A program made the translations under genes and the position numbers. A DNA stretch of 64,000 bases from Bradyrhizobium ontarionense (GTDB lineage: Bacteria; Pseudomonadota; Alphaproteobacteria; Rhizobiales; Xanthobacteraceae): the NCBI RefSeq assembly GCF_021088345.1, contig NZ_CP088156.1, forward strand, positions 5,890,001 through 5,954,000, given 5' to 3'. Shown piece by piece: positions 32,311-63,727 of this stretch. Within the stretch, counting starts at the first letter, position 1, and every line of letters begins with the position of its first letter. The notes beneath the pieces were generated by a model. The model made no database searches and had not been told where the DNA came from. It saw only the letters and a list, made by a program, of their open reading frames with translations.

Positions 32311-32760
32311 TTGAGCGGCCAATACGATACGTCGATCAATGAATCGCGGGGCGAGCGTCGGCGAACGCTCGCGGCGCTGTTCTGCATGGTCGCGGTCGCG
32401 CTCAATCTCGTCGGCGCGCTGACCCTTCCGTTCAGGTCGGCTCCGTTGGAGCTCACGGCTGCGGTCCTGGATCACGGCTGGACGATCATCTGTTCGGCCG
32501 GCGGGATGACCGTCCTCGATGCTGACGGTCACCGCGTCCCTGATGATCAGACGGGCCAGGCGGGGCCTGCGTCCGAGCATTGCGTTTTCTGCCTGCCTTT
32601 GATGCACGGAAATGTCGCGCTGGCGCCGGCGATTGAAATTCCGGTGCCCGCTCAATTTGTGCTGGCCGATCCTGCCTCTCGACCGGCCTCGATGCCCGTC
32701 GTGCGGCTGTCGGCGTTCGGCGCCTGGCCGCGGGCTCCCCCGGTGCTCCAGATCGGTTAG
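32311..32760 (+). CDS. DUF2946-like exported protein, copy 1
   Basis: 149 residues. A hydrophobic N-terminal segment (about 20-40) is followed by ICSAGG (Cys61), DADGHRVPD, the HCVFCLPL pair (Cys91, Cys94) and a tail WPRAPPVLQIG. The closest relative in the window is the protein at 45308, which has the same length and the same three cysteine positions. The start is taken as TTG 32311 because GGAG sits eight bases upstream and the paralogue also begins with TTG in the same context and aligns from this point. Function unknown; the cysteine pair and the setting (FixK-like regulator 87 bases downstream, cbb3 cluster nearby) suggest metal, perhaps copper, binding outside the cytoplasm. Confidence 0.82.
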   Translation: MSGQYDTSINESRGERRRTLAALFCMVAVALNLVGALTLPFRSAPLELTAAVLDHGWTIICSAGGMTVLDADGHRVPDDQTGQAGPASEHCVFCLPLMHGNVALAPAIEIPVPAQFVLADPASRPASMPVVRLSAFGAWPRAPPVLQIG

Positions 32761-32847
32761 TTCGAGCCAAATCGCGCCGCCGCTCGCTTCGTGCGCGCGC
32801 GTGCGCAATTGCCGCAGGTCGCGGCTATCCGATTGATTGATCGAGCC

Positions 32848-33606
32848 ATGAACAGCCTTCTTGATGGTGCGCTGACGCGTGCCGGCGCGCCTGCGTCTTC
32901 GCACGACGGAATTGAACTCGAACAATTGGGGTATGAGCGAGCCTCCGCACCGCGCTCCCTGGTGCTGTCCAGTGCGAATGAAATTCGAAGCTTCGCGGCT
33001 GGCCATACCGTCCACCGCGCAGGATCTCGTGCCGGCGCGGTTTTTCAGATCGTAACCGGGCACGTGAAGCTGTTGGCGCCAGCACGCAACGGCGGGCAAC
33101 AGATCGTGGCCCTGCTCGGAGCGGGCGATTGTTTCGGGCTGTCAGATGATGGCCGAAATCTCTGCAGCGCCGAAACCCTGACGCCGGTCCAGGTCAGGGT
33201 CCTCGCGCGCGGAAAAGTTGACAGCAACAGCATTCATGCGATCAACAGGCAGCTCCAGGCGCAGATGAGCGCGAGCTTCAGCCACTGCGTGGCAATCACG
33301 CAGCTTTCGGCCCGTGAGCGGCTCGCGGACTTCCTGACGAGATGGGCGAAGCGCGAAACGCCTCAGCTTCTGAACGGCGGAGCCGCAGATGCCGAGCCGA
33401 TCGAGCTGCGCATTCCACTGCTTCGCTATGAAATCGCAAACTACCTGTCCGTGACCACCGAAACCTTGTCTCGATGCTTTGCCGAGTTTCGCCGACGCGG
33501 TTTCATCAGCACGCCTACGCCAAAGGCGCGGGAGATCCTCCGCATTGATGACTTCCAAGGTCTCCTGGCGGTGTGCTCGGAGGCTCGGCCGGAGCAGCGA
33601 TCATGA
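32848..33606 (+). CDS. Crp/Fnr-family transcription regulator, FixK-like
   Basis: 252 residues: cyclic-nucleotide-binding-type fold (about 45-130), dimerisation helix, and a C-terminal winged helix with E205-T-L-S208-R209, the Fnr-type recognition residues for TTGAT-N4-ATCAA. It has no N-terminal cysteine cluster for a 4Fe-4S centre, so it resembles FixK rather than Fnr. Start uncertain: ATG 32848 is preferred, an in-frame GTG at 32791 is possible. A perfect site of the expected type lies at 45237-45250 ahead of the cyd genes, and cbb3 genes are adjacent, so control of low-oxygen respiration is a reasonable inference. Confidence 0.9.
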   Translation: MNSLLDGALTRAGAPASSHDGIELEQLGYERASAPRSLVLSSANEIRSFAAGHTVHRAGSRAGAVFQIVTGHVKLLAPARNGGQQIVALLGAGDCFGLSDDGRNLCSAETLTPVQVRVLARGKVDSNSIHAINRQLQAQMSASFSHCVAITQLSARERLADFLTRWAKRETPQLLNGGAADAEPIELRIPLLRYEIANYLSVTTETLSRCFAEFRRRGFISTPTPKAREILRIDDFQGLLAVCSEARPEQRS

Positions 33607-33721
33607 GAGATCGAGCGGAATTGCAGATGCGGTTCTCTCGCCGGCGACGCGCCGTTGGTTGTGTCCCTGTTCGTGGCGAGTTGGGTTTTGCAGCTCGTCC
33701 TTCTTCGCTGGAGCGTCTCGA

Positions 33722-34075
33722 ATGCCCCGTCTGATTCGCTTGCTTGCAAGGAATGCGCTGATCGGATTTGCGATCGCCGCCCTCGCTGTTGCCAGTCTCG
33801 TGGTCTTCGACGTCGCGCGTATCGGCTCACTGATCGCGCATGCCGAGCGGGGCTGGCTTGTCATCGGGCTTCTGACGTTCATGCTCGGTCTGACATTTGC
33901 CAGCGCGCAAATGGGCTTTGCAATCATGTTGTTGCCCTACGACCAGGAGGAGCCTCCTTCTGGCGCGCGGCAAATGGACTGCCGAGGGTGGAACCTGCGG
34001 CGACGACGAGCGGCAGTGAGACTCGTTGTCCGGCAACCGCGCCTGGACCGCGTTCAGCACAAACGCCATTTCTAG
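33722..34075 (+). CDS. Small inner-membrane protein
   Basis: 117 residues with two membrane segments (about 12-32 and 45-72) and a basic, low-complexity tail. GGAG lies eight bases before the ATG. I recognise it only as a type of small membrane protein common in rhizobia; no function can be assigned. It is on the same strand as the regulator and 20 bases before a DUF2946-like gene, probably in the same operon. Confidence 0.65.
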   Translation: MPRLIRLLARNALIGFAIAALAVASLVVFDVARIGSLIAHAERGWLVIGLLTFMLGLTFASAQMGFAIMLLPYDQEEPPSGARQMDCRGWNLRRRRAAVRLVVRQPRLDRVQHKRHF

Positions 34076-34095: not shown

Positions 34096-34491
34096 ATGTT
34101 GACGAGGTTGCGATCGGCGACGATCAGAATCCTGGCGGCAGGTCTTTATCTGTTCGCCGGGCTGTCCGTTGGCGCCGGTCATCGTCCCCTTGCCATCCCC
34201 TCCGATCCCCTTGCTGCGTATGTTTTGCCGGACGGTTCACGTCCGGTTCTCTGCCTGACCGAGAAGCGCTCGCCGCCCGGCGAGACTGACGGTTCGATCC
34301 AGGTCGAACATTGCGATGCTTGCCGCCTCGCCAGCGCCCCCGGCCTTCCGCCCATCGACGCGTCTCACGTGCGGATTGAGCGCGACAGGCTGTCTTTGGA
34401 ATTTGCCGTCCCGAGCGATGCGCCGATCCCGTTCCTGCAAACGCGCAGGCACTGTATCCGAGGACCGCCTTCTCCAGATGTCGTCGTCTGA
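34096..34491 (+). CDS. DUF2946-like exported protein, copy 2
   Basis: 131 residues: signal-like segment (about 10-27), single Cys53 in VLCL, then the H-C73-x-x-C76 pair and the tail RGPPSPDVVV. This is the same plan as copy 1 but more diverged. A good AGAGGAG ribosome site precedes ATG 34096; the much longer open frame upstream overlaps other genes and is discarded. Probably expressed with the small membrane protein in front of it. Function unknown. Confidence 0.75.
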   Translation: MLTRLRSATIRILAAGLYLFAGLSVGAGHRPLAIPSDPLAAYVLPDGSRPVLCLTEKRSPPGETDGSIQVEHCDACRLASAPGLPPIDASHVRIERDRLSLEFAVPSDAPIPFLQTRRHCIRGPPSPDVVV

Positions 34492-34957: not shown

Positions 34958-34966
34958 GGCCGGACC

Positions 34967-35833: not shown

Positions 35834-36012
35834 GCAACGACCTCCCGGCGAAGCTCGCCTTTGCTGCTGCTGCGGTCCGCGTTTCCCGGACGCCGCGGGC
35901 GGTCTTTGCCGCCTCGCGCCGTCGAAGCGCAAAGCCTAGCCCTTTGCTGCGAAAGAGCAAGCTCGGCACGCGTACCCCGTTCCCAGACCTCCTGCTCCTT
36001 GCAAGGCTAGCC

Positions 36013-37467
36013 ATGTCCGAATCCGTCCGTCCGCCCCTCCGTTATGACGATGATGTCGTCCGGCTGTTCACCGTCGCCACAGTGATCTGGGCGCTGGTCG
36101 GCTTCTCGGCGGGGGTGTTCATTGCAGGCGAGTTGGCCTTTCCTGCCTTGAACTTCGCCGAATGGGTCAATTTCGGCAGATTCCGTCCCGTTCACACCAG
36201 TGCCGTCATTCTGGGCTTCGGCGGAAACGCCCTGATGGGTACGTCACTCTATGTTGTGCAGCGCACCTGCCAGACCCGCCTGTTCGGCGGCCGCGGTCTG
36301 TCGGAGTTTCTGTTCTGGGGCTACCAGTTGACGCTGATCCTGGCCGCCACCGGCTATGTGCTCGGAGTGACCAAGAGCCAGGAATATGCCGAACCCGAAT
36401 GGTTCGCGATCCTGTGGCTGGTGATCGTCTGGATCGTCTATTTCGTGATCTTCACCGGGACGGTGGCTCGCCGGAAGGAGCCGCATATCTACGTCGCGAA
36501 CTGGTTCTATTGGGCCTTTATCCTGACCGTCGGCGTCCTGGTCGTCGTCAACAATCTCTCGGTTCCGATCTCGTTCACGTCCACGAAGAGCTATTCGCTC
36601 TGGAGCGGTGTCCAGAGCGCGATGATCCAGTGGTGGTACGGCCACAACATGGTCGGCTTCTTCCTGACCGCGGGCTTCATCGGCATCATGTACTACTTCG
36701 TGCCCAAGCAGGCGGGACGCCCGGTCTACAGCTATCGGCTGTCGATCGTTCATTTCTGGGCGCTGATCTTTCTGTACATCTGGGCGGGACCGCATCACCT
36801 GCACTTCACCGCGTTGCCGGACTGGACGCAGACGCTCGGCATGGTCTTCTCGGTGATGCTCTGGATGCCGTCCTGGGGTGGCATGATCAACGGCATCATG
36901 ACGCTGTCCGGCGCATGGGGAAAGCTTCGAACCGATCCGATTCTTCGCTTCCTCGTGGTCGCCGTCGCATTCTACGGCATGGCAACGTTCGAAGGACCGC
37001 TGATGGCCATCAAGCAGGTCAACGCGCTTTCGCACTTCACCGACTGGACCATCGGGCATGTCCATTCCGGGGCGCTGGGCTGGGTGGCCTACATCGCCTT
37101 CGGCGCCACATACTACATGGTACCGCGGTTATGGCGCCGGCCGCTCTATTCCACCGGGCTGATCGAAGCCCACTTCTGGCTCGCCAGCATCGGGATCATT
37201 CTCTACATCAGCGCAATGTGGGTGTCGGGCATCACCCAGGGTCTGATGTGGCGGGCCTATGACGAGCAGGGATTCCTGCAATATTCGTTCAGCGACACCG
37301 TGGCGATGCTGCATCCCTATTACGTGACGCGATTTGTCGGGGGCCTGTTCTACCTGAGCGGCGGCATCGTGATGGCCTACAATCTGTTCCGAACGATATC
37401 CCAGCCGCTCGCAAACGTCGTGCCTGATCGGATTCGCGGCGCCGCAGCTCCGCTTCCGGCGCAATGA
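36013..37467 (+). CDS. ccoN: Cytochrome cbb3 oxidase catalytic subunit CcoN/FixN
   Basis: 484 residues with about twelve membrane segments. Histidine motifs of the haem-copper family are visible: RPVHTSAV (His61), [18 protein letters not shown] and [10 protein letters not shown]. CcoN holds haem b, the haem b3-CuB centre, and reduces oxygen to water with high affinity. ATG 36013 (MSESVRPPL) is the family start; the longer frame is rejected. It leads a compact ccoNOQP-GHIS run. No TTGAT-N4-ATCAA box was found in the 180 bases upstream. Confidence 0.97.
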
Positions 37468-37477
37468 AGGAATCGAG

Positions 37478-38209
37478 ATGATCAATCACGCAGTCGTCGA
37501 GAAGAGCGCGCCTCTCTTCGTTCTCTTGACATTCATCACGATCGCGATCGGCGGTCTGATTCAGATCGTCCCCTTGTTCAAGATCGAAAGCACGATCGAG
37601 CCCGTCAAGGGCGTACGACCCTACACGCCGCTCGAGCAGATCGGCCGCAACATCTACATGCGCGAGGGCTGCTACAATTGCCACAGCCAGATGGTGCGCC
37701 CGTTGCGTGATGAGGTGGATCGCTACGGGCACTACAGCCTTGCCGCTGAGAGCGTGTACGATCATCCGTTCCTGTGGGGATCGAAGCGGACGGGGCCGGA
37801 TCTTGCCCGCGTCGGCGGCAAGTACTCGAACCAGTGGCATACAGCCCACCTGATCAATCCGCGCGACGTGCTGCCGTCATCGATCATGCCGCCTTATGAG
37901 TTTCTGCGCCGTCGCCCGATCCAGACGCGTGACATCAAGATGCATCTTCTCACGTTGAGCCAACTCGGGGTTCCCTACACCGCGGCGATGGTCGCCGCGG
38001 CCGAAGCGGACATCAGGGCCCAGGCCAATCCCGATGACGGCGACGTCGAGGCCCTGAAGCGGCGCTATCCGAAGGTCGCCGTCGGCCCCTTCACCGCACA
38101 AACTGAACGTATCACGGAGATGGATGCGCTGATCGCCTATCTCCAGGTCCTCGGGACGATGGTCGACTTTGCGCCCTATGACAGCGGGACGACGGAGCGG
38201 GCACGATGA
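37478..38209 (+). CDS. ccoO: Cytochrome cbb3 oxidase monohaem subunit CcoO/FixO
   Basis: 243 residues: one N-terminal membrane helix (about 12-32) and a periplasmic domain with a single haem c site C65-YNC-H69, followed by QMVRPLRDEVDRYG. It carries electrons from CcoP to CcoN. Starts ten bases after ccoN with AAGGAA; the stop overlaps ccoQ by ATGA. Confidence 0.97.
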   Translation: MINHAVVEKSAPLFVLLTFITIAIGGLIQIVPLFKIESTIEPVKGVRPYTPLEQIGRNIYMREGCYNCHSQMVRPLRDEVDRYGHYSLAAESVYDHPFLWGSKRTGPDLARVGGKYSNQWHTAHLINPRDVLPSSIMPPYEFLRRRPIQTRDIKMHLLTLSQLGVPYTAAMVAAAEADIRAQANPDDGDVEALKRRYPKVAVGPFTAQTERITEMDALIAYLQVLGTMVDFAPYDSGTTERAR

Positions 38210-38370
38210 ATGAAGTTCTCCTCGGCTACGCAGAAGGAGGCTTCCTCCTGCTCGCAATCGTCGTGATCTGCTGGATCGCACTCCGCGTGTTCGATCCGCG
38301 CGAGCGCAAGGCCATGGAGGCGCATGCTCGCATTCCATTCAGCCAGGAGGATGACAATGGCCGCGCCTGA
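38206..38370 (+). CDS. ccoQ: Cytochrome cbb3 oxidase small subunit CcoQ/FixQ
   Basis: 54 residues with one membrane helix (GGFLLLAIVVICWIALRV) and the FDPRERK segment after it, usual for CcoQ, which stabilises the complex. ATGA overlap with ccoO; its last five codons overlap the ccoP start. Confidence 0.9.
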   Translation: MNEVLLGYAEGGFLLLAIVVICWIALRVFDPRERKAMEAHARIPFSQEDDNGRA

Positions 38371-39244
38371 ACGGGATCCGCTGACCGGACAATATACGAC
38401 CGGGCATGTCTGGAATGGCATCAAGGAGCTGAGAACACCGGTGCCGGCGTGGTGGCTGATGGCGTGGTTCGTCTGCATCGCCTTTGCGCTGGGTTATATC
38501 GTGTTCTACCCGTCGTTTCCATCGCTGAGTGGCTTTGCACCCGGAAGTCTGCGCTGGTCCGCTCGCAGCGATCTGGCGGAGGACATCGCGACCGCCAAGC
38601 AGAAACAGGCGAGCTATCTCTCCCGCATTTCGAGTCTGCCCGTCGAGGCGATCCTCAAAGATCCGGATCTGTCGCGCTTTGCGTTCAACGGAGGTCATGC
38701 CGCCTTCGTCGTCAATTGCATCGCCTGCCATGGCGCGAGCGCAGGCGGCCAGATCGGACAGTTTCCGTCCCTCATCGACGACGACTGGATCTGGGGCGGG
38801 TCGATCGAGGAAATCTACCGCACCATCCGCTATGGCATTCGTAACGCCTCGGACGAAGCCAGATCGAGCATGATGCCCACATTCGGAGGCATGCTGTCGC
38901 CCCAGCAGATCGAGCAGGTCGCCGAATACGTCCAAGTGCTCAACCCGAATGCGAAGGGCCATGACGGCAGGGGATCCCTGCCGGGGGCCGCGATCTTCGA
39001 GCAGAATTGCGTCGGATGCCATGGGGCACAGGGGCAGGGCGGACGCGAAATGGGAGCGCCTCGGCTCAATGACGCGATCTGGCTCTACGGCGGGGCCAAA
39101 TCCCAGATCATGGCACAAGTGACGCATCCGCGGCACGGCGTCATGCCCGCGTTCGGTCTGCGCCTCTCGGACGAGACGGTGAAGATGCTTGCTGTCTACG
39201 TCCATTCTCTCGGCGGCGGCGAGCGTTCCGGAGCGGCGCAATGA
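38357..39244 (+). CDS. ccoP: Cytochrome cbb3 oxidase dihaem subunit CcoP/FixP
   Basis: 295 residues: cytoplasmic N-terminus (DPLTGQYTTGHVWNGIKEL-type start), one membrane helix (about 35-55), and two haem c sites, C121-IAC-H and C218-VGC-H. Receives electrons from cytochrome c. ATG 38357 is chosen over 38351 because AGGAGG abuts the earlier ATG and is properly spaced for the later one. The stop overlaps ccoG by ATGA. Confidence 0.97.
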   Translation: MAAPERDPLTGQYTTGHVWNGIKELRTPVPAWWLMAWFVCIAFALGYIVFYPSFPSLSGFAPGSLRWSARSDLAEDIATAKQKQASYLSRISSLPVEAILKDPDLSRFAFNGGHAAFVVNCIACHGASAGGQIGQFPSLIDDDWIWGGSIEEIYRTIRYGIRNASDEARSSMMPTFGGMLSPQQIEQVAEYVQVLNPNAKGHDGRGSLPGAAIFEQNCVGCHGAQGQGGREMGAPRLNDAIWLYGGAKSQIMAQVTHPRHGVMPAFGLRLSDETVKMLAVYVHSLGGGERSGAAQ

Positions 39245-40713
39245 CCGCGACGACCGCCGCCTCAGGTCGAGCGTCTCGCATCCCGCGCAAGCTCGCGCGC
39301 GGAATCCGTCCGAGGCGGGTCAAAGGGCGCTGGCGTACGGTCAAGACCGTCGTTCTCTCTGCTGTCGCCGGGACACTCTATCTGCTGCCGTGGCTGCGAT
39401 GGTCACGCGAGGCCGGGCGGCCGCAACAGGCCGTTCTCTTCGACTTTGCGTCGGCCCATGCCTATGTGTTCGGCTTTGAATTCGGCCCTCAGGATCTGTT
39501 CCTGCTATTGGCGCTGCTCATCGCCGCGGCGTTCGCACTGTTCCTGACCAATACCCTGGTTGGTCGCGTCTGGTGCGGATTTTCCTGCCCGCAGACGCTC
39601 TGGACCGATCTGTTCGTGATGATCGAGCGATGGCTGGAGGGCGACCGCCAGGACCGCATCCGACGCCACGCCAATCCCCAGAATGGCCGCGACTGGCTTC
39701 GAACGCCGGCAAAGCACGGGCTCTGGCTCGCGATCTCCGCCGCGACGGGGTTGACCGTCGTTTCCTATTTCGTCGATGCAAGGGTGCTCTGGCCGGAGTT
39801 CCTGACAGGCTCGGCTTCCGCTGCTGCGGCGACGTTCGTCCTGGTCTTCACCGCCGCGACCTACCTCCTTGCGGGCTTCGCGCGCGAGGTGGTGTGCACG
39901 CACATGTGTCCATGGCCTCGATTCCAGGCCGCCATGCTCGATCGCGACACGCTCATCGTCAGCTATCTGTCGGAACGGGGCGAGCCTCGCGGGCCGCTCA
40001 AGCGCGCAAGGCCGCGGTCGGACGGTCAGGGCGGCGATTGCGTCGATTGCGGTCTGTGCGTCGCGGTGTGTCCGACGGGCATCGATATCCGTGACGGCAT
40101 GCAGTTGGCCTGCATCGGTTGCGGCCTCTGTGCCGACGCGTGCAATGGGGTGATGAAGAAGCTGGACCGTCCGCTCGGCCTCATTTCTTTTGTCAGTGAA
40201 CGCGAGATGGCATCCCCGGATGCCGGATCGACGGCCGGTATTCGCCGCTTTCGAATCAGGCCGGTTGCCTTCGCGGCTCTTCTCACCATCACCTCGGGCC
40301 TGATCGTGTGGTCGCTGCTCGAGCGAACGACGATCGACGTCGCGATCACTCACGACCGCGCGCCACCCTTTGTCACTTTGTCCGACGGCTCGATCCGCAA
40401 CATCTTCACACTTCGTGTCGCCGATCGCCGGGCGGAGCGGTCCCGGCTCCGCGTTACCGTCGATGATCTGGCCGGAGCGGTCGTCCAGGTCAGCCGAAGC
40501 GCCGAGCAAGGCGCGCACGCGGACGAGCTTGGATTTGCGGGAACGCCGTCTGGCGAAGCCACATTCCGTTTGGTGGTCTCCGTCCCCTCGATCGCGGCGC
40601 CCGCCGGCCGCCGCGATCTGACTTTCCATGTCGTGGACACCGGCAGCGGTGCGGTGGTTGCGACCGTGGTGAGCTACTTCTGGGGTCCCGAGGGCGGGAC
40701 GCGCGCACCATGA
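39241..40713 (+). CDS. ccoG: Cytochrome oxidase maturation iron-sulfur protein CcoG/FixG
   Basis: 490 residues: several membrane segments, C-GFSC-PQT and C-THMC-PWPR cysteine motifs, then two 4Fe-4S clusters of the ferredoxin type (CVDCGLCVAVCP and CIGCGLCADAC) and a C-terminal immunoglobulin-like periplasmic domain. CcoG is a cupric reductase that supplies Cu(I) for CuB assembly. ATGA overlaps on both sides. Confidence 0.96.
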   Translation: MTATTAASGRASRIPRKLARGIRPRRVKGRWRTVKTVVLSAVAGTLYLLPWLRWSREAGRPQQAVLFDFASAHAYVFGFEFGPQDLFLLLALLIAAAFALFLTNTLVGRVWCGFSCPQTLWTDLFVMIERWLEGDRQDRIRRHANPQNGRDWLRTPAKHGLWLAISAATGLTVVSYFVDARVLWPEFLTGSASAAAATFVLVFTAATYLLAGFAREVVCTHMCPWPRFQAAMLDRDTLIVSYLSERGEPRGPLKRARPRSDGQGGDCVDCGLCVAVCPTGIDIRDGMQLACIGCGLCADACNGVMKKLDRPLGLISFVSEREMASPDAGSTAGIRRFRIRPVAFAALLTITSGLIVWSLLERTTIDVAITHDRAPPFVTLSDGSIRNIFTLRVADRRAERSRLRVTVDDLAGAVVQVSRSAEQGAHADELGFAGTPSGEATFRLVVSVPSIAAPAGRRDLTFHVVDTGSGAVVATVVSYFWGPEGGTRAP

Positions 40714-41219
40714 ACCGCATCGTCCGCAATCTGATCGCGAATGACCGGTGGATTCCGGCCCTGATCGTCGTCGTTTTTCTTGGACTGGCGGGACTCGAAG
40801 CGCGTTTCATCTTCCTGGCCGTCTCCACCTTTCCGGGAGTCGTCACCGAACAGCCCTATGAGCACGGCCTGCACTACAATGACGTTCTCGTGGCGGAAGC
40901 AGCTCAGAAGGCGCGCGGCTGGACCGTCCGCACCTCCTACGCAGGATCGGCAGGCGCCGAGAACATCCTGCTCGTCTCGGTTCGCGACAAGGCGGGCGCG
41001 CCCGTCACGGCAGCTCTCGTTCAGGTCGTCGCCACGCAGGTGACGCGGCACACCCAGGCGATCGTGACGGACCTCAAGGAGACGTCGCCGGGGAACTACG
41101 ATGCGCAGCTCCGGCTCCCGCTCGGCGGTCGCTGGATGCTTCGGGTCGTCGTACGCAAAGGAGATGCCATCGACCGTCACGTCCAGGATATCATGATTGG
41201 CGGGCGTACTCAGTCATGA
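40710..41219 (+). CDS. ccoH: cbb3 oxidase assembly protein CcoH/FixH
   Basis: 169 residues: membrane anchor at about 15-38 then a periplasmic FixH domain with EQPYEHGLHYNDVLV and GGRWMLRVVV. Needed for stable assembly of the cbb3 complex. ATGA overlaps with ccoG and ccoI. Confidence 0.94.
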   Translation: MNRIVRNLIANDRWIPALIVVVFLGLAGLEARFIFLAVSTFPGVVTEQPYEHGLHYNDVLVAEAAQKARGWTVRTSYAGSAGAENILLVSVRDKAGAPVTAALVQVVATQVTRHTQAIVTDLKETSPGNYDAQLRLPLGGRWMLRVVVRKGDAIDRHVQDIMIGGRTQS

Positions 41220-43441: not shown

Positions 43442-43602
43442 TGGATGTTCTGCTGGTGCTCGTCCCGATCGCACTTGCGTTGGGGACTTTGGGCCTGTTC
43501 GCCTTCTTCTGGGCGATCAAGGGGGGCCAGTACGAGGATCTTCAGGGCGCAGCCGAACGCATCCTCTACGACGAGGACCCACCGAACCAGAAGGAGATCT
43601 GA
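43441..43602 (+). CDS. ccoS: cbb3 oxidase maturation protein CcoS/FixS
   Basis: 53 residues with one membrane helix at the start and the conserved FFWAIKGGQYEDLQGAAERI-type core followed by an acidic ILYDEDP. Required for cofactor insertion into cbb3 oxidase. Follows ccoI with a one-base overlap. Confidence 0.95.
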   Translation: MDVLLVLVPIALALGTLGLFAFFWAIKGGQYEDLQGAAERILYDEDPPNQKEI

Positions 43603-43603
43603 A

Positions 43604-44278
43604 ATGAATACCCGACAACAGACCCGGTCACGAGATTCAGAAAACTCCGTCCTGATCCTGCTCAACGGACTCGGTGCCGGCATTCTCGGCTACGCCGTGT
43701 GGGGCGTGACAGGCGGTGTCCTTGGAGCGCTCGCGTGCATGGTGGTCGCCGCGTCCATGCCGACGGCGGCCCGGTTGAGGTCGCTGGTCATGCCGAAGCG
43801 CCGTCAAATGGTGCAAGCCGCGGTCGCAACAGAAGCGGGCAGGGCGATTGCGAGCGTGCTTGCCTTCCCATTCGTCATGCTGGCAGCGATCGTTGTCATG
43901 GCATTCACGATGTTGGCCGCGGTCCTGCTGATGGGCGTCAAGCAGGTGAAACAGGCCGTAGGACCCCTGCTGCCGAGCAGGAGTGCCTCGCCCAGCTCCG
44001 GCGGTCAGGCGTCATCGACCTTCTTCAGTTCGCTCGGCGCGCCGGAAAGCCTGACGATGCTGATCGCAAATCTGCTTCTGCTTCTGATCATTGGCTGTGC
44101 GCTGTTCGGGATGGATGTCGCATTCTACGCGGCACTGGTGGCCACCCCGGTCTGGCTGCTCGGGTTGATGCTGATCGCGATCAACGGATCGAAGCCCGAT
44201 GATGCCGCTTCTCCGATTGGCGGAGCCTCTCAGCCGTCGGACGCTGCCCCTCTGCACCAGCACGCAAAGCTGCAATGA
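43604..44278 (+). CDS. Membrane protein downstream of ccoS, unknown
   Basis: 224 residues with hydrophobic segments at about 16-50, 82-112 and 162-198 and a polar Ser/Pro-rich loop between the second and third. No family recognised. It begins one base after the ccoS stop and overlaps the next gene by ATGA, so it is part of the cco operon by position and may assist oxidase biogenesis. Confidence 0.75.
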   Translation: MNTRQQTRSRDSENSVLILLNGLGAGILGYAVWGVTGGVLGALACMVVAASMPTAARLRSLVMPKRRQMVQAAVATEAGRAIASVLAFPFVMLAAIVVMAFTMLAAVLLMGVKQVKQAVGPLLPSRSASPSSGGQASSTFFSSLGAPESLTMLIANLLLLLIIGCALFGMDVAFYAALVATPVWLLGLMLIAINGSKPDDAASPIGGASQPSDAAPLHQHAKLQ

Positions 44279-50938: not shown

Positions 50939-51378
50939 GCCTCGCGTCGAAAACCGCCGCTCAGACATCGCGAGACGTCCGCTGCGCCGCGTTGCTGCAG
51001 GTCGTCGAGGGTGATTGGAGCATCGGCTGCAAGTTGCTGGCGTAGATTGGTCGGCACGGGCGTCGCACGCTGGTGGATGCCAGCGCACGCCGAGAGTGCC
51101 CTCGGCCCGCAATTGTCGAATTGATCTTGCTCAAACGACAGCTCCTGACGGCTCTTCTCGACAACATCGGTCGCGCGTGCGCGACACTCGGCTCGTGTCG
51201 CAGGTGCAAAGATCCGGCTGGATTGAATTTGAAAGCTGTTTTTCAGTATGAGGATTGTCAGGCATTGTCTTACTAGCGGATCGCGCGTAAACTTTGCCCT
51301 CATTGAAGTTTGTGCGTTCGATGTCCCGGGACGTTTTCGAGCCTCGTCCGGAAACGCATCGCGTAAGCGATGGCTCAT
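50935..51378 (-). CDS. Uncertain small protein ahead of DUF2946-like copy 4
   Basis: An open frame of up to 147 residues, perhaps starting later at 51303. No family recognised. The C-terminal half (TNLRQQLAADAPITLDDLQQ) has ordinary protein composition and its stop overlaps the next start by ATGA, which is the only reason to list it. It could equally be a chance frame. Bases 51379-51556 hold nothing recognisable. Confidence 0.3.
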   Translation of the reverse strand: MSHRLRDAFPDEARKRPGTSNAQTSMRAKFTRDPLVRQCLTILILKNSFQIQSSRIFAPATRAECRARATDVVEKSRQELSFEQDQFDNCGPRALSACAGIHQRATPVPTNLRQQLAADAPITLDDLQQRGAADVSRCLSGGFRREA

Positions 51379-54444: not shown

Positions 54445-54445
54445 G

Positions 54446-57931: not shown

Positions 57932-58642
57932 TCAGGAGCGGCACCATGCGGCCAATGTCGATGGCGGGATGATGGCGCTGACGACCCCGACTGTGATGAT
58001 GGCCAAGCCAACCGCGTTGCGCAGCCATGTTGAAGTAGCTCTGCGGCGCAGGATCGGAAGGCCGAGGCCGGCCGCCAGCAGCGCGGGGAGGGTGCCGACG
58101 CCGAAGCCGCCCATGGCCAGCGCGCCACCGAGCCATGAGCCGGACAGCATGGCATAGAAGAGCGCTGCATAGACCATGGCGCATGGCAGAAAGCCCCAGG
58201 CCACGCCGCTCATCAGGAGCCCCATCTTGGGAGGAAGGCTCGCTGTGCGAGCGATGCGGGTCATCTTGGAGCTCACATAGGATGCCAGGCGATGGAGGCC
58301 CGTCGGCCACGGCACGAGATCGAGCATCGAAAGTCCGATCCAGGCGAGCGCCGCTGCCGCGGCCCAGCGCAGGATGAAATGCTCCAATGTGTGGTCGAAC
58401 GCGCCAATCACGCTCGACCCGGCTGCGCCGACGGTGGCGCCCGCCAGGACATAGGCCGCAATTCGACCCCCATTGATCAGAACCGCCGCGGACCAAGGAT
58501 CGTCTTGCGGCCAGGACCGACCCGACTGAGCTGCAAAATGCAAACTCGATGCGATCCCCGAGCACATGCCAAAGCAATGCAGGCTCGAGGAGAAGCCAAG
58601 CAGCAACCCGGCGATGAAGAGAGGCTGATCGAAGTCGAACAT
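57932..58642 (-). CDS. TauE/SafE-like membrane protein, copy 2
   Basis: 236 residues, about six membrane segments. SSLH22-C23-FGM-C27 in the first and GFLPCAMVYA in the fourth match the copy at 44275 and give the same cysteine layout. It is the last gene of the leftward run that begins with the DUF2946-like gene at 62559. The pairing of this family with a TonB receptor here, and with cbb3 genes in the other copy, supports a metal-related role for it. Confidence 0.87.
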   Translation of the reverse strand: MFDFDQPLFIAGLLLGFSSSLHCFGMCSGIASSLHFAAQSGRSWPQDDPWSAAVLINGGRIAAYVLAGATVGAAGSSVIGAFDHTLEHFILRWAAAAALAWIGLSMLDLVPWPTGLHRLASYVSSKMTRIARTASLPPKMGLLMSGVAWGFLPCAMVYAALFYAMLSGSWLGGALAMGGFGVGTLPALLAAGLGLPILRRRATSTWLRNAVGLAIITVGVVSAIIPPSTLAAWCRS

Positions 58643-58710
58643 TGTGGAGGCATTTGACGCGATGCTGCTTCGGAAGTCGTTGCGCTGCGTCAAAGCCGTC
58701 TTGTTGACCG

Positions 58711-58941
58711 CTAGTCTCCGATCAGAAACTCCTTCGTGCCGATCGCGAGCGAACCGAATGCGAACGCAATCGGGATGAGGCCGACATCGAAGAGACTTGC
58801 GCCGGCCCCGACGAGCAGCGAACGCAATCCGCCGACGTCGAGCAGATAGATCGCGGACATGAACAGCACGCCGAGGCTCGTGCCCATGACGAACGGGATG
58901 AGAACGTGCGTCGAAAACGATCTGAGTCCATCGCGGTTCAC
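58711..58941 (-). CDS. Small two-helix membrane protein
   Basis: 76 residues, GTG start with GGGGGT five to six bases before. Two membrane segments (LIPFVMGTSLGVLFMSAIYLL and a second at about 45-65). No family recognised. Same strand as, and between, the isonitrile-hydratase-like gene and the TauE/SafE-like gene, 75 and 68 bases from them, so likely in that operon. Confidence 0.65.
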   Translation of the reverse strand: MNRDGLRSFSTHVLIPFVMGTSLGVLFMSAIYLLDVGGLRSLLVGAGASLFDVGLIPIAFAFGSLAIGTKEFLIGD

Positions 58942-59016
58942 GCTGACCCCCAATCGGGTTCAATGGTTATCATATGGTTGTCGTGAGGCTCGCAGGCATG
59001 CCACGCCGGCCTTCCC

Positions 59017-59832
59017 CTACGTCTTGCGAGCGGTCTCGCAGGCGGCCTTGGCGTCTGCCAGGAAACCGGTGAACATATCGTCCATCAGCTTCCGTGTCGC
59101 CGCCGAGGCGAGAGCCGGCGTGCCGGACTGGAACGGCGGTTCCGGGGCGTATTCGGCCAGCAATTGCACGACCTCGGCATATTGACGGTCGCGCAAATCC
59201 CCGACCATCGACAGGCCGAAATCGAGCCCGGCGCTGACGCCGCCGGCGGTGATCCGGTTGCGATCACGTACGATGCGTCCCTCGGCCGGGATGGCGCCGA
59301 CCGCCGGCAGGATGGAGCGGGTGAGCCAATGCGAGGTGGCGCGATAGCCGTCCAGCAGCCCGGCCGCGCCGAGCAGCAGCGAGCCAGTGCAGACCGAGGT
59401 GACGAAGCGCGCCTTGCCGCCGCGATCGGCCAGGAAGCGCAATGTCGCGGGATCGCGGATCGCCGCCAGCGTCCCGGATGTCCCGCCCGGCACACAGATG
59501 ATGTCGAGCTGATCGGGACAATCGTCGAACGACTTGCTCGGCGTGAAGACGAGACCGGTGTCGCTGGTGACGGGCGCCATCGTCTTGGCGACGATGTGGG
59601 TGGTGGCGCCCATCAGGTTCGTGAACATGTAGTGCGGCCCGACCATGTCGAGCGCGGTGAAGGCCGGATAGATCAGGAAGGCGATCTGCTCCTTCCCGGT
59701 CCAATGTGCCGGCATCGCGGACATGTCGTGGGCGGGCGGCGGCAACGCGCTGTCGCTTTCCGCCGCAGTCGCTGCTGCGCCGGAGAAGGCCAGCGCAATG
59801 AGCGCGGCCAGGTCTCGTCGTGTCGTTTCCAT
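59017..59832 (-). CDS. Exported DJ-1/PfpI protein, isonitrile-hydratase-like
   Basis: 271 residues. A signal peptide with a twin-arginine-like start (TTRRDLAALIAL, cleavage near ATA-AES), then a DJ-1/PfpI domain with LIYPAFTALDMVGP, ICVPGGTSGT, the nucleophile elbow TSVCTGSLLLGAAGLLDGYR, SHWL and ITAGGVSAGLDFGL. This set matches the isonitrile hydratase branch, which converts isonitriles to N-formyl amines. The known enzyme is cytoplasmic, so a signal peptide is unusual. It sits nine bases after a TonB-receptor gene in the same operon, which suggests it acts on something imported to the periplasm. The substrate is not proven. Confidence 0.85.
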   Translation of the reverse strand: METTRRDLAALIALAFSGAAATAAESDSALPPPAHDMSAMPAHWTGKEQIAFLIYPAFTALDMVGPHYMFTNLMGATTHIVAKTMAPVTSDTGLVFTPSKSFDDCPDQLDIICVPGGTSGTLAAIRDPATLRFLADRGGKARFVTSVCTGSLLLGAAGLLDGYRATSHWLTRSILPAVGAIPAEGRIVRDRNRITAGGVSAGLDFGLSMVGDLRDRQYAEVVQLLAEYAPEPPFQSGTPALASAATRKLMDDMFTGFLADAKAACETARKT

Positions 59833-59841
59833 GATGCCTGC

Positions 59842-62127
59842 TCAGTTGAACTTGAGGGCCAGCTTGCCGTAGACGGTGCGCCCTTCTCCCGGTGCGACAC
59901 GTCCGTCGAAATAGGCGTAGGGTACGAAGTATTTCTCGTTGGTCAGGTTCTTGAAAGTCAACGAGACGTGATAGCGCGGGTCGTCATAGGCGATCTTCGA
60001 ATCGATCGTGAAGTAGCCGCTCGTCTTGTAGAGGTTGGCGGGATCGACATAGGCCCCCGATGCCGCATAGACGCCGGCGCCAAGGCTCCAGCCCTGCCAG
60101 CGGCCGTCAAGGCGATAGTTGACCCAGAGCCTGCCGGAATCGGCAGGCACCCAGTTTAGCTTGTTGCCGGCGCGCACCGTGGCCGCGACATCCTTGGTCA
60201 GCACCGCATCGACATGGGCGTAGCTGCCGAGCACGGACCATTGCGCCGTCGGCTGCCAGAGCACGTCGAGATCGAGCCCGCGGGACCGTTGCTCGCCGGC
60301 GGGAATGCTGACGAGGGGATTGTTCGGATCCGAAATAGGAACGCCGCTGCGATTGATCTCGAACACCGCCAGCGTGCCCGAGAGCCCGGCCCCAGAGTTG
60401 AACTTGATGCCCGCTTCCGTCTGCTTGGAGGTCTCCGGCTTCGGAGGTCCGGAGTAGAGCGCAAAGGGGTTGCCCTTCAGGCCTTCGCTGTAGTCGGCGA
60501 ATACCGAGAAGCCCTTGACCAGATCGACGACTGCGCCGACGCGGGGCAGGGCCTTGGTGACATCGGTGATATCCGTCGTCGCGAAGGCCGGCTGGACACT
60601 GTCGATGTGCAGGTTGGCGAGCCGGACGCCACCGAGCAGATGGACGCGATCCCAGAGCGATGATTGCCACTGCGTATAGAAGCCCTGCGTCCTGTAGACG
60701 TTGTCGCCGTCGACCACGACCGAGAACGGGCCGCGGACCGGCTCGACATAGGCCGGGTAAACCGGATTGCGCAGATCGACGGGGACGCCGCCTGCAAAGA
60801 ACTGGGCCGGGTCGACATACATCGCGCCGACATCAGTGACGCGGCTATAGTCGTAGCCGAACAGCAGCCTGTTCTCGCTGATGCCGAGACGGAACTTGGC
60901 GAGCGCATTGGCGACGACCGAAAGCTCCTTCTGCTCCTGGCCGAGGGCCAGGTTGGTCACGCCCCAGGTCGAGCCGAAGGCCGGCGCGTTGGAGAAGATG
61001 TCCTGGGCCAGCTCTTGGAAGCGGGTCTTGCCCGCCCGGACCTGCACGTTCGCCGACCAGACCTCGTTGAACTCGTGATCGAGCTTGGCGGTCACGCTCT
61101 GGGTCGTCGAGTACGACTTCGGAATGTTCGACGGACCGATGAAGAGATTGCGGTTGAGCCGGAAGTCGCCGGTGACGGTGCCGACCGCTGGGAGACCCTG
61201 ATACTCCTGCTGCCGCCAGTCGGAGAACCGCCCCTGGATCGTCAGCGTCGTATCCTCCTTGTTGGTGAACAGCAGCGTCGGGTTGATCGCATAGCGTTTG
61301 GTGTCGATCGTATCGATGAAGGAGCTTGAGGAGGTGTATTCACCCGTCAGGCGCGACAGCACCGTGCCGTCCTTCGACAGCGGCTGGTTGATGTCGAAAT
61401 AGGGCTGCACGAAGCCGTAGCTGCCGAAGGTCGAGCCGAACTCGCTGAACGCGCGGTTGGTCGGCAGCTTGGAGACGATGTTGATGACGCCGCCGAGGGG
61501 CGCGCCGGAGCCGCCGCCATACAGGATCGCGTTGGGGCCCTTCAGCACCTCGATGCGCTCCACGTTCACGAGCGAGTCGCGGTTGCCCGCATTGTAGTAG
61601 CTCGTGAGGCCGTCCAGCCATTGTTCGGCCGCGAAGCCGCGGATGCGGGCGCTTTCGTAGGCCGGCGTCTGCAGCGGGCTGGTGGCCTGAACGCCGCTGA
61701 CGTTGCGGGTGGCTTCAGCGACGGACAGGCTGTTCTGGTCGTCGATGACGGCGCGGGGCACGACGTTGATCGAGGCCGGAATGCGTTCCGTCGGCGTGTT
61801 GGTCCGGGTGCTGCCGGTCGCGGTCAGCGCCTGATAGCCCTGCACGGGACCCGCCGTCGTCTGGGTGACCGGCAGGGCCGGGTTGACGATCACGCCGCTG
61901 GGGAGCTGCGTCTGGGTCGGCGGCGGAGCCGTCCGCTGCTGCGGCCGCGCTGCCGGCGGCTGGCTGGAGCTGGCGCGGCGCACGGGTTTGGCCGGCTTCC
62001 TCTCGGTGGGCGCATCCACCGTAACGGAGGGGAGATTGCGATCTGATTGGGGTTGGGACTGTGCGGGTTCGATAAGAGCAGCAACAACAGCCGCCGCCGC
62101 ACCCAGGGTGGGCAGTCGATGTGACAC
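59842..62127 (-). CDS. TonB-dependent siderophore-type receptor
   Basis: 761 residues, GTG start. Signal peptide ending near AQSQ, TonB-box-like LPSVTVDAPT, a Pro-rich linker, plug domain (PASINVVPR, RIEVLKGPNAILYGGGSGAPLGG) and a barrel ending TVYGKLALKFN. It belongs to the FhuA/FpvA group by plug motifs. Starts 42 bases after the DUF2946-like gene at 62170-62559 and is followed by the exported DJ-1/PfpI protein, so the receptor, a small cysteine protein and a hydrolase are made together. Confidence 0.94.
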   Translation of the reverse strand: MSHRLPTLGAAAAVVAALIEPAQSQPQSDRNLPSVTVDAPTERKPAKPVRRASSSQPPAARPQQRTAPPPTQTQLPSGVIVNPALPVTQTTAGPVQGYQALTATGSTRTNTPTERIPASINVVPRAVIDDQNSLSVAEATRNVSGVQATSPLQTPAYESARIRGFAAEQWLDGLTSYYNAGNRDSLVNVERIEVLKGPNAILYGGGSGAPLGGVINIVSKLPTNRAFSEFGSTFGSYGFVQPYFDINQPLSKDGTVLSRLTGEYTSSSSFIDTIDTKRYAINPTLLFTNKEDTTLTIQGRFSDWRQQEYQGLPAVGTVTGDFRLNRNLFIGPSNIPKSYSTTQSVTAKLDHEFNEVWSANVQVRAGKTRFQELAQDIFSNAPAFGSTWGVTNLALGQEQKELSVVANALAKFRLGISENRLLFGYDYSRVTDVGAMYVDPAQFFAGGVPVDLRNPVYPAYVEPVRGPFSVVVDGDNVYRTQGFYTQWQSSLWDRVHLLGGVRLANLHIDSVQPAFATTDITDVTKALPRVGAVVDLVKGFSVFADYSEGLKGNPFALYSGPPKPETSKQTEAGIKFNSGAGLSGTLAVFEINRSGVPISDPNNPLVSIPAGEQRSRGLDLDVLWQPTAQWSVLGSYAHVDAVLTKDVAATVRAGNKLNWVPADSGRLWVNYRLDGRWQGWSLGAGVYAASGAYVDPANLYKTSGYFTIDSKIAYDDPRYHVSLTFKNLTNEKYFVPYAYFDGRVAPGEGRTVYGKLALKFN

Positions 62128-62169
62128 GGTAGGATGCTCCGATGGACGCTGAGGACGGTGAGGTCAATC

Positions 62170-62559
62170 TCAGGCCTCGCTCGGGGGACCTCTCGTCAGC
62201 CGTGGCTGGTGTCGTCGCGCAAGCGTGGCTGCGGCAGGTTTGGAATCTGCGACATCGCTTGCGGGGGCGATCTGATGGATGTGAATCGTGGCGGGTGCGG
62301 GGGCAAGCCCTGCGTGTGCTGCGAACACGCAGATGTCGCAGAGAGACTTGTGGAGAGGCGGATGGCTCTTGGGGTCGATCTCCGATGATGAATGATCATC
62401 GGAAGCGCAGATCGACAGCTCCAAAGCCGATCCGAACGCCAGAGCGCTGCCTTCCATGCGAGAGGCGAGCGAGCCGGCGAGGATCGTCTGGAAGACGAAC
62501 AGCAAAGCGACCGCAAGCATGGCGGTAGAGTGTCGCTCTGCTCGTCGTCCTCCCCGCAT
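62170..62559 (-). CDS. DUF2946-like exported protein, copy 5
   Basis: 129 residues: basic N-terminus, hydrophobic segment (about 12-33), SICAS (Cys51), a His/Asp-rich stretch, the C74-DI-C77 pair with nearby histidines, and the tail TRGPPSEA. First gene of the leftward TonB-receptor operon. Same plan as the other members of the set. Function unknown. Confidence 0.78.
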   Translation of the reverse strand: MRGGRRAERHSTAMLAVALLFVFQTILAGSLASRMEGSALAFGSALELSICASDDHSSSEIDPKSHPPLHKSLCDICVFAAHAGLAPAPATIHIHQIAPASDVADSKPAAATLARRHQPRLTRGPPSEA

Positions 62560-63331
62560 GACTTTGTCCCACCACCCCGGTCCCGCGAACGATAGTGTCG
62601 AGCTTGGGCGAGTCCATATGTCGCGAAGCCGCGGCGGATCGTCCGGTTACAAGTGTGACGAATATGTCGCATTGTTTCCGCACAATGGCGGTCGTGCTGG
62701 CACGGGACGGGTCACCTCCCGAAGTCAGGAAATGTCGGTGGGCGGCGCTGCCGTCGGCAAGGCCCTGCCTTCTCCGACGTCGTCGCCACTGCGTCCGCGA
62801 AAGGCGACGCCTGGTTAGCTTGCCGAGCGCACAGGTCCTGGGTGGGCGACCAGATCTGCGTCGAGCTGTCAAATCTTACCGCCTGGATGGACGACTCAGA
62901 GATCCCACGTGCCGGTCTCTATGAGCTACCCAGTTGCGCATCGCGCCAAACTGCACTCGACCCATCCGATCGAGAGGGACGGCGGCGAAATCGAGCGCCG
63001 TAACGAGACCGTCGGCATGTCTCCGGCGAGGAGGCCATCGTCGGTCTGTCGCAGGCTGATCAGTTTGGCGAGAGCCGCCAGTGCCCCACCGCGGCCGCGA
63101 CGCCACGGGACACGAAAATGGCCTGGCGACGATGCCCGTCGCAGCCACGATGGCGCGACAAAGCCGCAGAATTGCCGCTCGATGAGAGCTCAACGAAAAT
63201 GAAGCGCGCGCCGACGCGAGACCTCAGTTCGGCCACAGCTCAGGCTGATAGTTGCTGCATGACAGGCGCGGGTTTTCGTCCGGTGATCGGTCAATCAAGA
63301 AATCCCCTGCAGCAGGACAAGCAGTCGGACT
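62560..63331. other. Divergent intergenic region between DUF2946-like copies 5 and 6
   Basis: Over 750 bases with no supportable gene on either strand; must carry the promoters of both neighbours. No strong repeat or known operator was seen. Confidence 0.4.
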
Positions 63332-63727
63332 ATGTTCCGTTCATTCGGCAATAAGCGGCTACGAGCGCGTGCCTGTGTCGCGCTCGGCCTCGCTTATCTG
63401 CTCGCGTTCCAGGCTCTGATGTTCAGCCTTACGGCAGGGGCGATGGCTGGCTCCGCGGAGCCGGCGATTTCGGACATCTGCAGATCCGAGGGTAACACCA
63501 CCAGTCGCGATGGCTCTGGGCAGGAGCACCAGCAGTCGCACCTTCCCACCTGTTGCCTGACGGGCGGCGCCATGTTCGGCGCGAGCGGCGTGCCGCCGAC
63601 TGCCCCGTCATTGGCAGTGCCTCGGTTGTCTGAGCATAGCGCCTCCGTCCATTGCTCGGCAGACGGCCGTGTCGATATCGGACGCCGGCGAACGCTGTGT
63701 AGCCCCCGCGGTCCACCAATCGCCTGA
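63332..63727 (+). CDS. DUF2946-like exported protein, copy 6
   Basis: 131 residues: hydrophobic segment (about 15-38), DICRS (Cys50), a His/Gln stretch, a C74-C75 doublet in place of CxxC, and the tail PRGPPIA. A secreted or anchored protein of the same kind as the five others. The doublet means its metal-binding geometry, if any, differs. It precedes another exported protein on the same strand. Confidence 0.75.
   Translation: MFRSFGNKRLRARACVALGLAYLLAFQALMFSLTAGAMAGSAEPAISDICRSEGNTTSRDGSGQEHQQSHLPTCCLTGGAMFGASGVPPTAPSLAVPRLSEHSASVHCSADGRVDIGRRRTLCSPRGPPIA

What the first reader, a model, noticed from the sequence alone, without database searches (positions are those of the whole stretch)
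32311..63727. Six DUF2946-like exported proteins share one cysteine plan and an R-[AG]-P-P tail within 32 kb
Proteins at 32311, 34096, 45308, 50528, 62170 and 63332 each have an N-terminal hydrophobic segment, one early Cys in an I/L-C context, a CxxC pair (CC in the last) and a tail ending R-A/G-P-P plus a few residues. Seen directly. Each lies beside a FixK-like regulator, oxidase genes or a TonB receptor. So many paralogues in one stretch suggests a family of periplasmic metal (copper?) handlers, each matched to a different client or receptor. DUF2946 has no known function; the role is inferred.
Basis: partly seen in the sequence, partly recalled or inferred. Interest (0 to 1): 0.72.

Follow-up and report, generated by a model that had tools for sequence, protein, structure and literature searches.

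The report
Copper-sensing leader peptides guard respiration genes
The six small proteins are most likely copper sensors that act while still being made, pausing the ribosome to switch the next gene on or off; this bacterium carries an unusual number of them, including one ahead of a copper-free respiratory enzyme and one ahead of a regulator gene.

Summary
In detail: six related small proteins with an early Cys, CxxC (CC in the sixth) and an R[AG]PP tail. Shuffles give 0.005 CxxC+tail motifs against 5 observed. Five of six join by profile; the 34096 copy is borderline.

The family is DUF2946/CruR, described as a copper-responsive upstream ORF (PMC9426467). The tail is a ribosome-arrest motif, shown for Bordetella CruR (PMC12992588); the CxxC is its copper switch. 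Here the Cys-to-tail gap is 44-47 residues in 12 of 13 genomic copies, 12 of 13 head a same-strand gene, and seven lie within 37.5 kb. They are best read as nascent-chain metal sensors, one per operon, not periplasmic handlers.

New here are clients: cydAB (copper-free bd oxidase), a FixK/FNR-type regulator, DUF2244-DUF983 and a di-haem cytochrome. The first three recur elsewhere: one CruR-cydAB, three CruR-cydDC-cydAB, one CruR-CRP/FNR, one CruR-DUF2244. Exact FNR/FixK boxes precede three of five cyd leaders and one of two DUF2244 leaders. I propose that low O2 and low Cu together switch on the bd oxidase. There are no expression data.

The parts
32311..32760 (+). c1: CruR/DUF2946-type leader ORF (149 aa, TTG start), CVFC and RAPP tail
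   Evidence: Pfam DUF2946 37.7 bits; motif gap 46
32848..33606 (+). client of c1: CRP/FNR-family regulator, FixK-like; 87 nt after c1
   Evidence: Pfam HTH_Crp_2 and cNMP_binding; best NCBIfam match FixK 79 bits, below its cut-off of 300
33722..34075 (+). small ORF of 117 aa, hydrophobic by eye, no family
   Evidence: sequence; no Pfam hit
34096..34491 (+). c2: CruR-like ORF with CDAC and RGPP tail, no close same-strand client
   Evidence: motif gap 45; weak profile support E 0.11
35944..44973 (+). cbb3 oxidase operon: ccoN, ccoO, ccoP, ccoG, ccoH, ccoI (Cu P-type ATPase), unknown 277 aa, DsbD_2
   Evidence: Pfam, NCBIfam for the ATPase
45237..45250 (.). FNR/FixK-type box TTGATCTCGATCAA, 71 nt before the c3 start
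   Evidence: exact match
45308..45757 (+). c3: CruR-type leader ORF (149 aa, TTG start), CLFC and RAPP tail
   Evidence: Pfam DUF2946 30.8 bits; motif gap 46
45849..46154 (+). small conserved ORF just before cydA (101 aa)
   Evidence: 60% identical ORF at the same place in L058; no Pfam or NCBIfam hit
46177..47760 (+). cydA, cytochrome bd oxidase subunit I, client of c3
   Evidence: Pfam PF01654 581.7 bits
47770..48921 (+). cydB, cytochrome bd oxidase subunit II
   Evidence: Pfam PF02322
49171..49701 (-). DUF983 protein, second gene after c4 (exact start not settled)
   Evidence: Pfam PF06170 104.9 bits
49701..50450 (-). DUF2244 membrane protein, client of c4, 77 nt downstream
   Evidence: Pfam PF10003
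50528..50968 (-). c4: CruR-type leader ORF (146 aa from ATG 50968), CCILC and RAPP tail
   Evidence: Pfam DUF2946 35.2 bits (longer reading of the frame); motif gap 44
51121..51134 (.). FNR/FixK-type box, 166 nt before the c4 start
   Evidence: exact match
57932..58963 (-). DsbD_2 protein, end of the c5 operon
   Evidence: Pfam
59017..59832 (-). DJ-1/PfpI protein in the c5 operon
   Evidence: Pfam
59842..62127 (-). TonB-dependent receptor, client of c5, 42 nt downstream; of the siderophore-receptor class
   Evidence: Pfam, NCBIfam TIGR01783 305.4 bits, above its cut-off
62170..62559 (-). c5: CruR-type leader ORF (129 aa), CDIC and RGPP tail
   Evidence: Pfam 23.5 bits, cut-off 23.7; leave-one-out E 6e-15
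63332..63727 (+). c6: CruR-type leader ORF (131 aa), CC instead of CxxC, RGPP tail; its client is a di-haem cytochrome starting at window position 63934 and running past the window end
   Evidence: leave-one-out E 5e-9; client CCP_MauG in L009:3934-4698

Best explanation
The proteins are CruR-type upstream ORFs: short proteins with an export segment that sense copper while still being translated. Step 1 (published for Bordetella CruR): with little copper the ribosome arrests on the R[AG]PP tail. Step 2 (published model there): the arrested ribosome keeps the downstream operon on, by keeping Rho off the transcript. Step 3 (published model there): copper binding at CxxC releases the arrest and downstream expression stops. 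Step 4 (inferred here): this genome uses the same switch for many operons, each with its own leader: TonB receptors, PCuAC, YcnI, and in this island a FixK/FNR-type regulator, the copper-free bd oxidase, DUF2244-DUF983 and a di-haem cytochrome. Step 5 (inferred): the cyd and DUF2244 leaders of this island sit behind FNR/FixK boxes, so those operons need low oxygen for transcription and low copper for read-through. For c1 and c3 the arrested ribosome may also free the next start site, as in SecM/CutF-type control. The confidence below is for metal-sensing nascent-chain leaders; rival 2 is a variant inside that reading with the opposite sign.
For: 13 copies in the genome. Gap from the second Cys of the motif to Arg is 44-47 in 12 of 13, tail 2-6 residues from the stop in 13 of 13; [quoted passage not shown] 12 of 13 head a same-strand gene. 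Among relatives, 27 of the 29 best-scoring genus loci head a TonB receptor by tblastn. c12 heads TonB-PepSY_TM, the published Bordetella layout. Unusual clients recur: CruR before cydAB in L058 and before cydD-cydC-cydAB in L092, L104 and L121, that is 4 of 80 cydA loci kept; CruR before a CRP/FNR regulator in L217 and before DUF2244 in L198. Exact FNR/FixK boxes before the c3, c4, L058 and L104 leaders. Stall-dependent opening of the next start site for c1 and c3: 1 of 60 and 2 of 60 shuffled controls as large.
Against: No expression, translation or copper data for this organism. The direction of control is borrowed from CruR; CutF works the other way, copper prolonging the pause (PMC9973294). 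c2 has no client and weak profile support; c6 lacks CxxC. Receptors after c5 and c7 pass the siderophore-receptor model (TIGR01783), not the copper one, and the receptor after c10 is most like the zinc receptor ZnuD, though below its cut-off, so not every copy need read copper. The C-over-G signature of Rho sites is only weakly higher at the six leaders than at 31 other genes (one-sided p 0.033, uncorrected). Start-site opening is weak, absent or reversed in 8 of the 12 leaders tested; c2, c11 and c13 were not tested. No exact FNR/FixK box lies before the L092 and L121 cyd leaders or anywhere in the held stretches of L198 and L217. Six genus relatives with cydA at 65-77% identity have no such leader in about 1.5 kb upstream, so leader control of cyd is not general in the genus.
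Confidence: 0.83

Rival explanations
1. Stable periplasmic copper handlers, each dedicated to one client protein.
For: Hydrophobic export-like segment, CxxC, and neighbours that use or move copper.
Against: The arrest tail near the stop and the fixed gap have no role in this reading. The published relatives CruR and CutF were not detected as cellular proteins and do not work in trans. The C-terminal half of c3 is predicted with low confidence, 52-61 pLDDT per block after residue 80. Clients include a regulator and a copper-free oxidase, neither of which needs copper delivered.
Confidence: 0.08
2. CutF-type leaders: copper binding prolongs the pause and opens a hairpin over the next start site, so copper switches the client on.
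For: Intergenic gaps of 42-97 nt for c1, c3, c4, c5, c7 fall in the range under 100 nt in which most CutF-like genes lie; stall-dependent opening for c1, c3 and c7.
Against: TonB receptors and a copper-free oxidase would be made when copper is plentiful, which is physiologically backward. The motif is CxxC as in CruR in 11 of 13 copies, whereas CutF has CxxxC; c7 alone has CxxxC.
Confidence: 0.15
3. Sensors of another metal or of thiol redox state rather than copper.
For: Some CutF-like proteins sit before nickel/cobalt genes. The island also has DsbD_2, DJ-1 and siderophore-class receptors. c10, elsewhere in this genome, heads a ZnuD-like receptor.
Against: Other genomic copies head PCuAC, YcnI, a CopCD-linked receptor, a PepSY_TM-linked receptor and a receptor whose best model is the copper receptor TIGR01778, below its cut-off. 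Bordetella CruR responded to copper, little to Fe or Zn.
Confidence: 0.08

Closest known systems
CruR of Bordetella pertussis (DUF2946, cruR-crtA-crpH operon; PMC9426467, parts 1-4 of 7 read)
   Same: DUF2946 protein with export segment, CxxC, RAPP, gap 45, first gene of operon; c12 here has the same TonB-PepSY_TM order
   Different: Clients here include cydAB, a FixK/FNR-type regulator, DUF2244-DUF983 and a di-haem cytochrome; 13 copies, seven in one island; FNR/FixK boxes before two of them
CutF of Rhodobacter capsulatus (cutFOG; PMC9973294, passages and sections 11-12 read)
   Same: Cys-motif leader with C-terminal proline motif that acts only in cis
   Different: CutF has CxxxC and copper increases downstream expression; here CxxC and RAPP/RGPP in most copies
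RAPP/RGPP arrest peptides ApdA and ApdP, and RAPG in ApcA (PMC12992588, passages and section 13 read; PMC10951233 seen only in a search listing)
   Same: Same or similar C-terminal arrest motif
   Different: Those watch protein export; here a Cys motif lies ahead of the arrest motif
Bradyrhizobium japonicum copper-starvation operon for oxidase biogenesis headed by a cruR homologue (one sentence in PMC9426467)
   Same: c9-PCuAC-c8-TonB-CopCD elsewhere in this genome may be a similar layout
   Different: The original paper was not read here, so the match of layouts is untested

Membership tests
CruR/DUF2946 upstream ORFs | Profile match to DUF2946 or to the other copies | tested here: met
   12 of 13 copies recovered by leave-one-out profiles at E 0.0018 or better; c2 E 0.11
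CruR/DUF2946 upstream ORFs | CxxC about 45 residues before RAPP, constant within one or two residues | tested here: met
   11 of 13 copies have CxxC with gap 44-47; c7 has CxxxC with gap 46; c6 has CC without CxxC
CruR/DUF2946 upstream ORFs | First position before a same-strand, usually copper-linked operon | tested here: met
   12 of 13 head a same-strand gene; c2 does not
CruR/DUF2946 upstream ORFs | N-terminal export segment | tested here: inconclusive
   Hydrophobic segment visible in the translations; helix 11-40 predicted for c3; no signal-peptide predictor was available
CruR/DUF2946 upstream ORFs | Translation arrest at RAPP, relieved by copper at CxxC | not testable with these tools
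   needs in-vitro translation
CruR/DUF2946 upstream ORFs | Rho-dependent termination before the second gene (C-over-G region) | tested here: inconclusive
   mean C-G 7.6% at six leaders against 2.6% at 31 genes, one-sided p 0.033
CutF-type leaders | CxxxC motif | tested here: not met
   CxxxC only in c7; 11 others have CxxC and c6 has CC
CutF-type leaders | Hairpin over the next start site opened by the paused ribosome | tested here: inconclusive
   suggested for c1, c3 and c7; weak, absent or reversed in 8 of 12 tested

The most novel reading that the evidence does not exclude
A copper-and-oxygen gate for swapping terminal oxidases. Nascent-chain copper sensors sit both before a FixK/FNR-type regulator (c1) and before the copper-free bd oxidase (c3). 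The c3 leader lies behind a perfect FNR/FixK box which the c1-controlled regulator could itself read. Low copper stalls both leaders: more regulator is made, it transcribes the cyd operon, and the stalled c3 leader lets that transcript through. The cell then respires without copper. CruR-cydDC-cydAB in three Burkholderiales suggests that nascent-chain copper control of bd oxidase arose, or was kept, more than once.
Probability: 0.4. Interest if true: 0.76.

Novelty: new variant of a known kind. Interest (0 to 1): 0.57.

Why it matters
bd oxidase is needed for growth of Bordetella under copper limitation (PMC12914433, passages), but the passages read here do not say how cells sense copper to make that swap. 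A leader peptide that reads copper and sits directly before cydAB or cydDC would make that switch testable. A leader before an FNR/FixK-type regulator would extend nascent-chain metal sensing from single operons to a transcriptional network. One genome with 13 paralogous leaders is also a natural set for asking how arrest peptides are tuned to different clients.

Tried and rejected
Periplasmic metal handlers: rejected as the main reading, see rivals. Recent tandem duplication of the seven island copies: not supported, since c1/c3 are 42% identical and the other 20 pairs 24-36% over aligned columns. c2 as leader of the cbb3 operon: not supported, since two ORFs on the other strand (34628-34957 and DUF2189 34967-35932) lie between. 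ORF 34556-36010 + as a client of c2: rejected as antisense to DUF2189.

c3 on plasmids: no match. The L058 leader on plasmids: one partial Azospirillum match whose tail reads GGPP and which is followed by an opposite-strand gene, so it is not counted as support. Profile of the three betaproteobacterial cyd leaders in 398 phylum genomes: 10 genomes match, 12 loci, none cyd-linked by tblastn in the 1.5 kb flanks. Profile of the c1/c3 subfamily in 385 class genomes: 3 genomes; besides this genome's two, one copy heads a PCuAC-like gene, one has no clear client, one runs off its contig. A protein search with c3 alone found 2 relatives, with the five-sequence profile 140; their gene context is not held.

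Rows set aside. One search printed 4 arginine-rich frames in L166 and L167, set aside. In some searches the start used for the gene after c7, and also that after the L058 leader, was one base off; the c7 gap is 97 nt from ATG 9368 (46 nt if ATG 9419 is used).

Papers: searches. In main texts, cydA, cytochrome bd, FixK, FNR and quinol do not occur in PMC9426467; FNR and cyd do not occur in PMC9973294; oxidase, cytochrome, cbb3, Crp and FNR do not occur in PMC12992588. Figures and supplements, which list client families, were not held, so I cannot say these clients are unpublished.
Full report
Observation. The six ORFs are real and alike in plan. Each has a hydrophobic N-terminal segment (by eye), an early Cys, a CxxC (CC in the sixth) and an R[AG]PP tail 2-6 residues before the stop. 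The window gives 5 six-frame matches to C..C-(42-48)-R[AG]PP-(0-8)-stop; 200 dinucleotide shuffles gave a mean of 0.005 and a maximum of 1. Pfam puts three of six above the DUF2946 cut-off and two below it; the 34096 copy scores E 0.35. Leave-one-out profiles built from the other 12 genomic copies recover five of the six at E 0.0018 or better and c2 at 0.11; profiles built from the other five window copies recover five at E 0.0023 or better and c2 at 1.2. c2 is therefore a member by motif and spacing rather than by profile.

Extent. The window is C1:5890001-5954000 of an 8.44 Mb genome. A profile of ten copies finds 13 places; the three weakest also carry CxxC and an R[AG]PP tail. Seven of 13 lie in 37,545 bp; for 13 copies placed at random, a cluster that tight has a probability of about 1e-10 (simple scan approximation). 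With Pfam, the 59 other genomes sampled from the genus have 0-5 copies, against 6 here in that call and 8, which scored more candidates. With the ten-copy profile they have 0-5, against 11 here in that call and 13. In one search only 69 candidates per genome were scored at most, so its counts are lower bounds, and the profile was built from this genome's own copies.

What the family does elsewhere. DUF2946 was named CruR in 2022 (PMC9426467; parts 1-4 of 7 read). In Bordetella the first gene of a copper-repressed operon is an upstream ORF. [quoted passage not shown] Copper triggers Rho-dependent termination. Arrest at RAPP was then shown in vitro, with the third and fourth residues in the P and A sites (PMC12992588, passages and section 13). 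A relative, CutF, is reported to pause longer with copper and so to open a hairpin over the next gene (PMC9973294, passages and sections 11-12).

Fit here. The gap is 44-47 in 12 of 13 copies and the tail is within 6 residues of the stop in 13 of 13. 12 of 13 copies head a same-strand gene. c1: a FixK-like CRP/FNR regulator. c3: a small ORF and cydAB. c4: DUF2244-DUF983. c5: a TonB receptor, DJ-1 and DsbD_2. c6: a di-haem cytochrome. c7: a TonB receptor of the siderophore class (TIGR01783, 293.9 bits against a cut-off of 223.5) and a DJ-1-like protein below its cut-offs, so the c5 and c7 operons look alike. c8: a TonB receptor and CopC-CopD; c9: PCuAC; c10: a TonB receptor. c11: YcnI; c12: a TonB receptor and PepSY_TM. 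c13: a TonB receptor, best model TIGR01778 copper receptor at 86.5 bits, below its cut-off (no Pfam hit). c2 has no close same-strand gene.

Results against a purely copper reading. The receptors after c5 and c7 pass the siderophore model, and the receptor after c10 is most like the zinc receptor ZnuD (210.8 bits, cut-off 950). c10 also lacks the early Cys. Some leaders may read another metal.

Are the clients usual? Of the 29 best-scoring genus loci, 27 head a TonB receptor by tblastn and 2 were unassigned. Of 29 class loci, 16 head TonB, YcnI, PCuAC or CopCD, 11 were unassigned and 2 lacked the tail. A Pfam scan of ten downstream proteins from the class set gave one CRP/FNR regulator (L217), one DUF2244 (L198), one PCuAC, one YcnI, one TonB receptor, one periplasmic binding protein, one weak match and three without a family. 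So the c1 and c4 clients each recur once in genomes of other families of the class. Both of those leaders pass the DUF2946 cut-off. The L217 regulator and the c1 regulator both carry E-T-x-S-R in the presumed recognition helix; that this marks FNR/FixK-type DNA reading is recalled, not tested.

cyd linkage. 80 cydA loci were kept, the best of 583 matches. 4 of 80 have a CruR-type leader at the head of the cyd genes. In L058, a MAG contig labelled Stygiobacter (I suspect mis-binning), the leader is followed by a small ORF 60% like the window's and then cydAB, with 417 nt between leader stop and cydA against 419 in the window. In L092 (Paracidovorax cattleyae), L104 (Hydrogenophaga) and L121 (Comamonas) the leader precedes cydD-cydC-cydA-cydB. 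CydD passes the NCBIfam cut-off in 3 of 3; CydC passes in L121 and falls short in L104 (323.8) and L092 (306.3 against 329.05). All four leaders are DUF2946 above the cut-off. By contrast, six genus relatives with cydA at 65-77% identity show no such leader in about 1.5 kb upstream.

Oxygen input. TTGA-N6-TCAA occurs exactly three times in the window (0.5 expected; 2 of 100 shuffles reach 3): inside the giant ORF, 71 nt before c3, and 166 nt before c4. It also occurs 37 nt before the L058 leader and twice before the L104 leader. The other 11 own-genome leaders, L092 and L121 have no exact box within 400 nt, and none occurs in the held stretches of L198 and L217. So 3 of 5 cyd leaders and 1 of 2 DUF2244 leaders have an exact box, and none of the receptor-type leaders in this genome has one.

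How the switch may work. In folding tests, blocking the transcript up to the edge of a ribosome stalled on the tail raises access to the next start site for c1 (0.18 to 0.37), c3 (0.42 to 0.50) and c7 (0.16 to 0.46); 1, 2 and 2 of 60 shuffled intergenic controls did as well. For c12, whose gap is only 2 nt, the effect is large but follows from the geometry and its control is empty. In the remaining 8 of 12 leaders tested (c4, c5, c6, c8, c9, c10, L217, L058) it was weak, absent or reversed; c5 was matched by 6 of 60 controls. The C-over-G signature of Rho sites is only slightly raised. I therefore hold the metal-sensing leader as likely, the direction (copper off) as probable by analogy, and the exact route (Rho or start-site opening) as open and perhaps different between copies.

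Structure. AlphaFold2 on c3 with a 32-sequence alignment gives mean pLDDT 70; after residue 80 the ten-residue means are 52-61. This fits a protein that acts as a nascent chain, though low confidence is not proof of disorder.

Novelty. The mechanism and family are known. I did not find the cyd, CRP/FNR and DUF2244 clients in the main-text passages and term searches made, but the figures and supplements of those papers were not available.

Noticed in passing
window 670-16665 +, 16763-17842 +: A 5331-aa non-ribosomal peptide synthetase (condensation, adenylation and carrier domains, terminal thioesterase) followed by a PhyH-type oxygenase, beside a TonB receptor (19859-22066) and TonB/ExbB-like genes (22527-25023). 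It may make a metallophore; beside a copper island it could be a copper chelator, which is untested.
   Followed up: partly
window 27052-31342 -: Two NosL-family genes followed by an FtsX-type permease, an ABC ATPase and an unknown 331-aa protein, next to the first leader: possibly a copper-delivery transporter.
   Followed up: partly
window 51557-57749: Two ABC-2/DUF3526 membrane proteins and an ABC ATPase on the minus strand, divergent from a TonB receptor, with no leader of their own seen.
   Followed up: no
L010:9455-10979 (genome C1:1554455-1555979): Two different CruR-type leaders in one run: leader, PCuAC, leader, TonB receptor, CopC-CopD fusion.
   Followed up: partly
L011:9964-12852 (genome C1:3169964-3172852): Leader c10 has CxxC and RAPP but no early Cys, heads a receptor most like the zinc receptor ZnuD, and has a palindrome-like GATGTTACAATATAACATC just upstream that resembles Zur sites as I recall them. 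It could be a zinc version of the switch.
   Followed up: no
   Followed up: partly
   Followed up: no
window 63332-63727 +: c6 has CC and lacks the second CxxC cysteine yet keeps the RGPP tail; it may sense differently or not at all.
   Followed up: no
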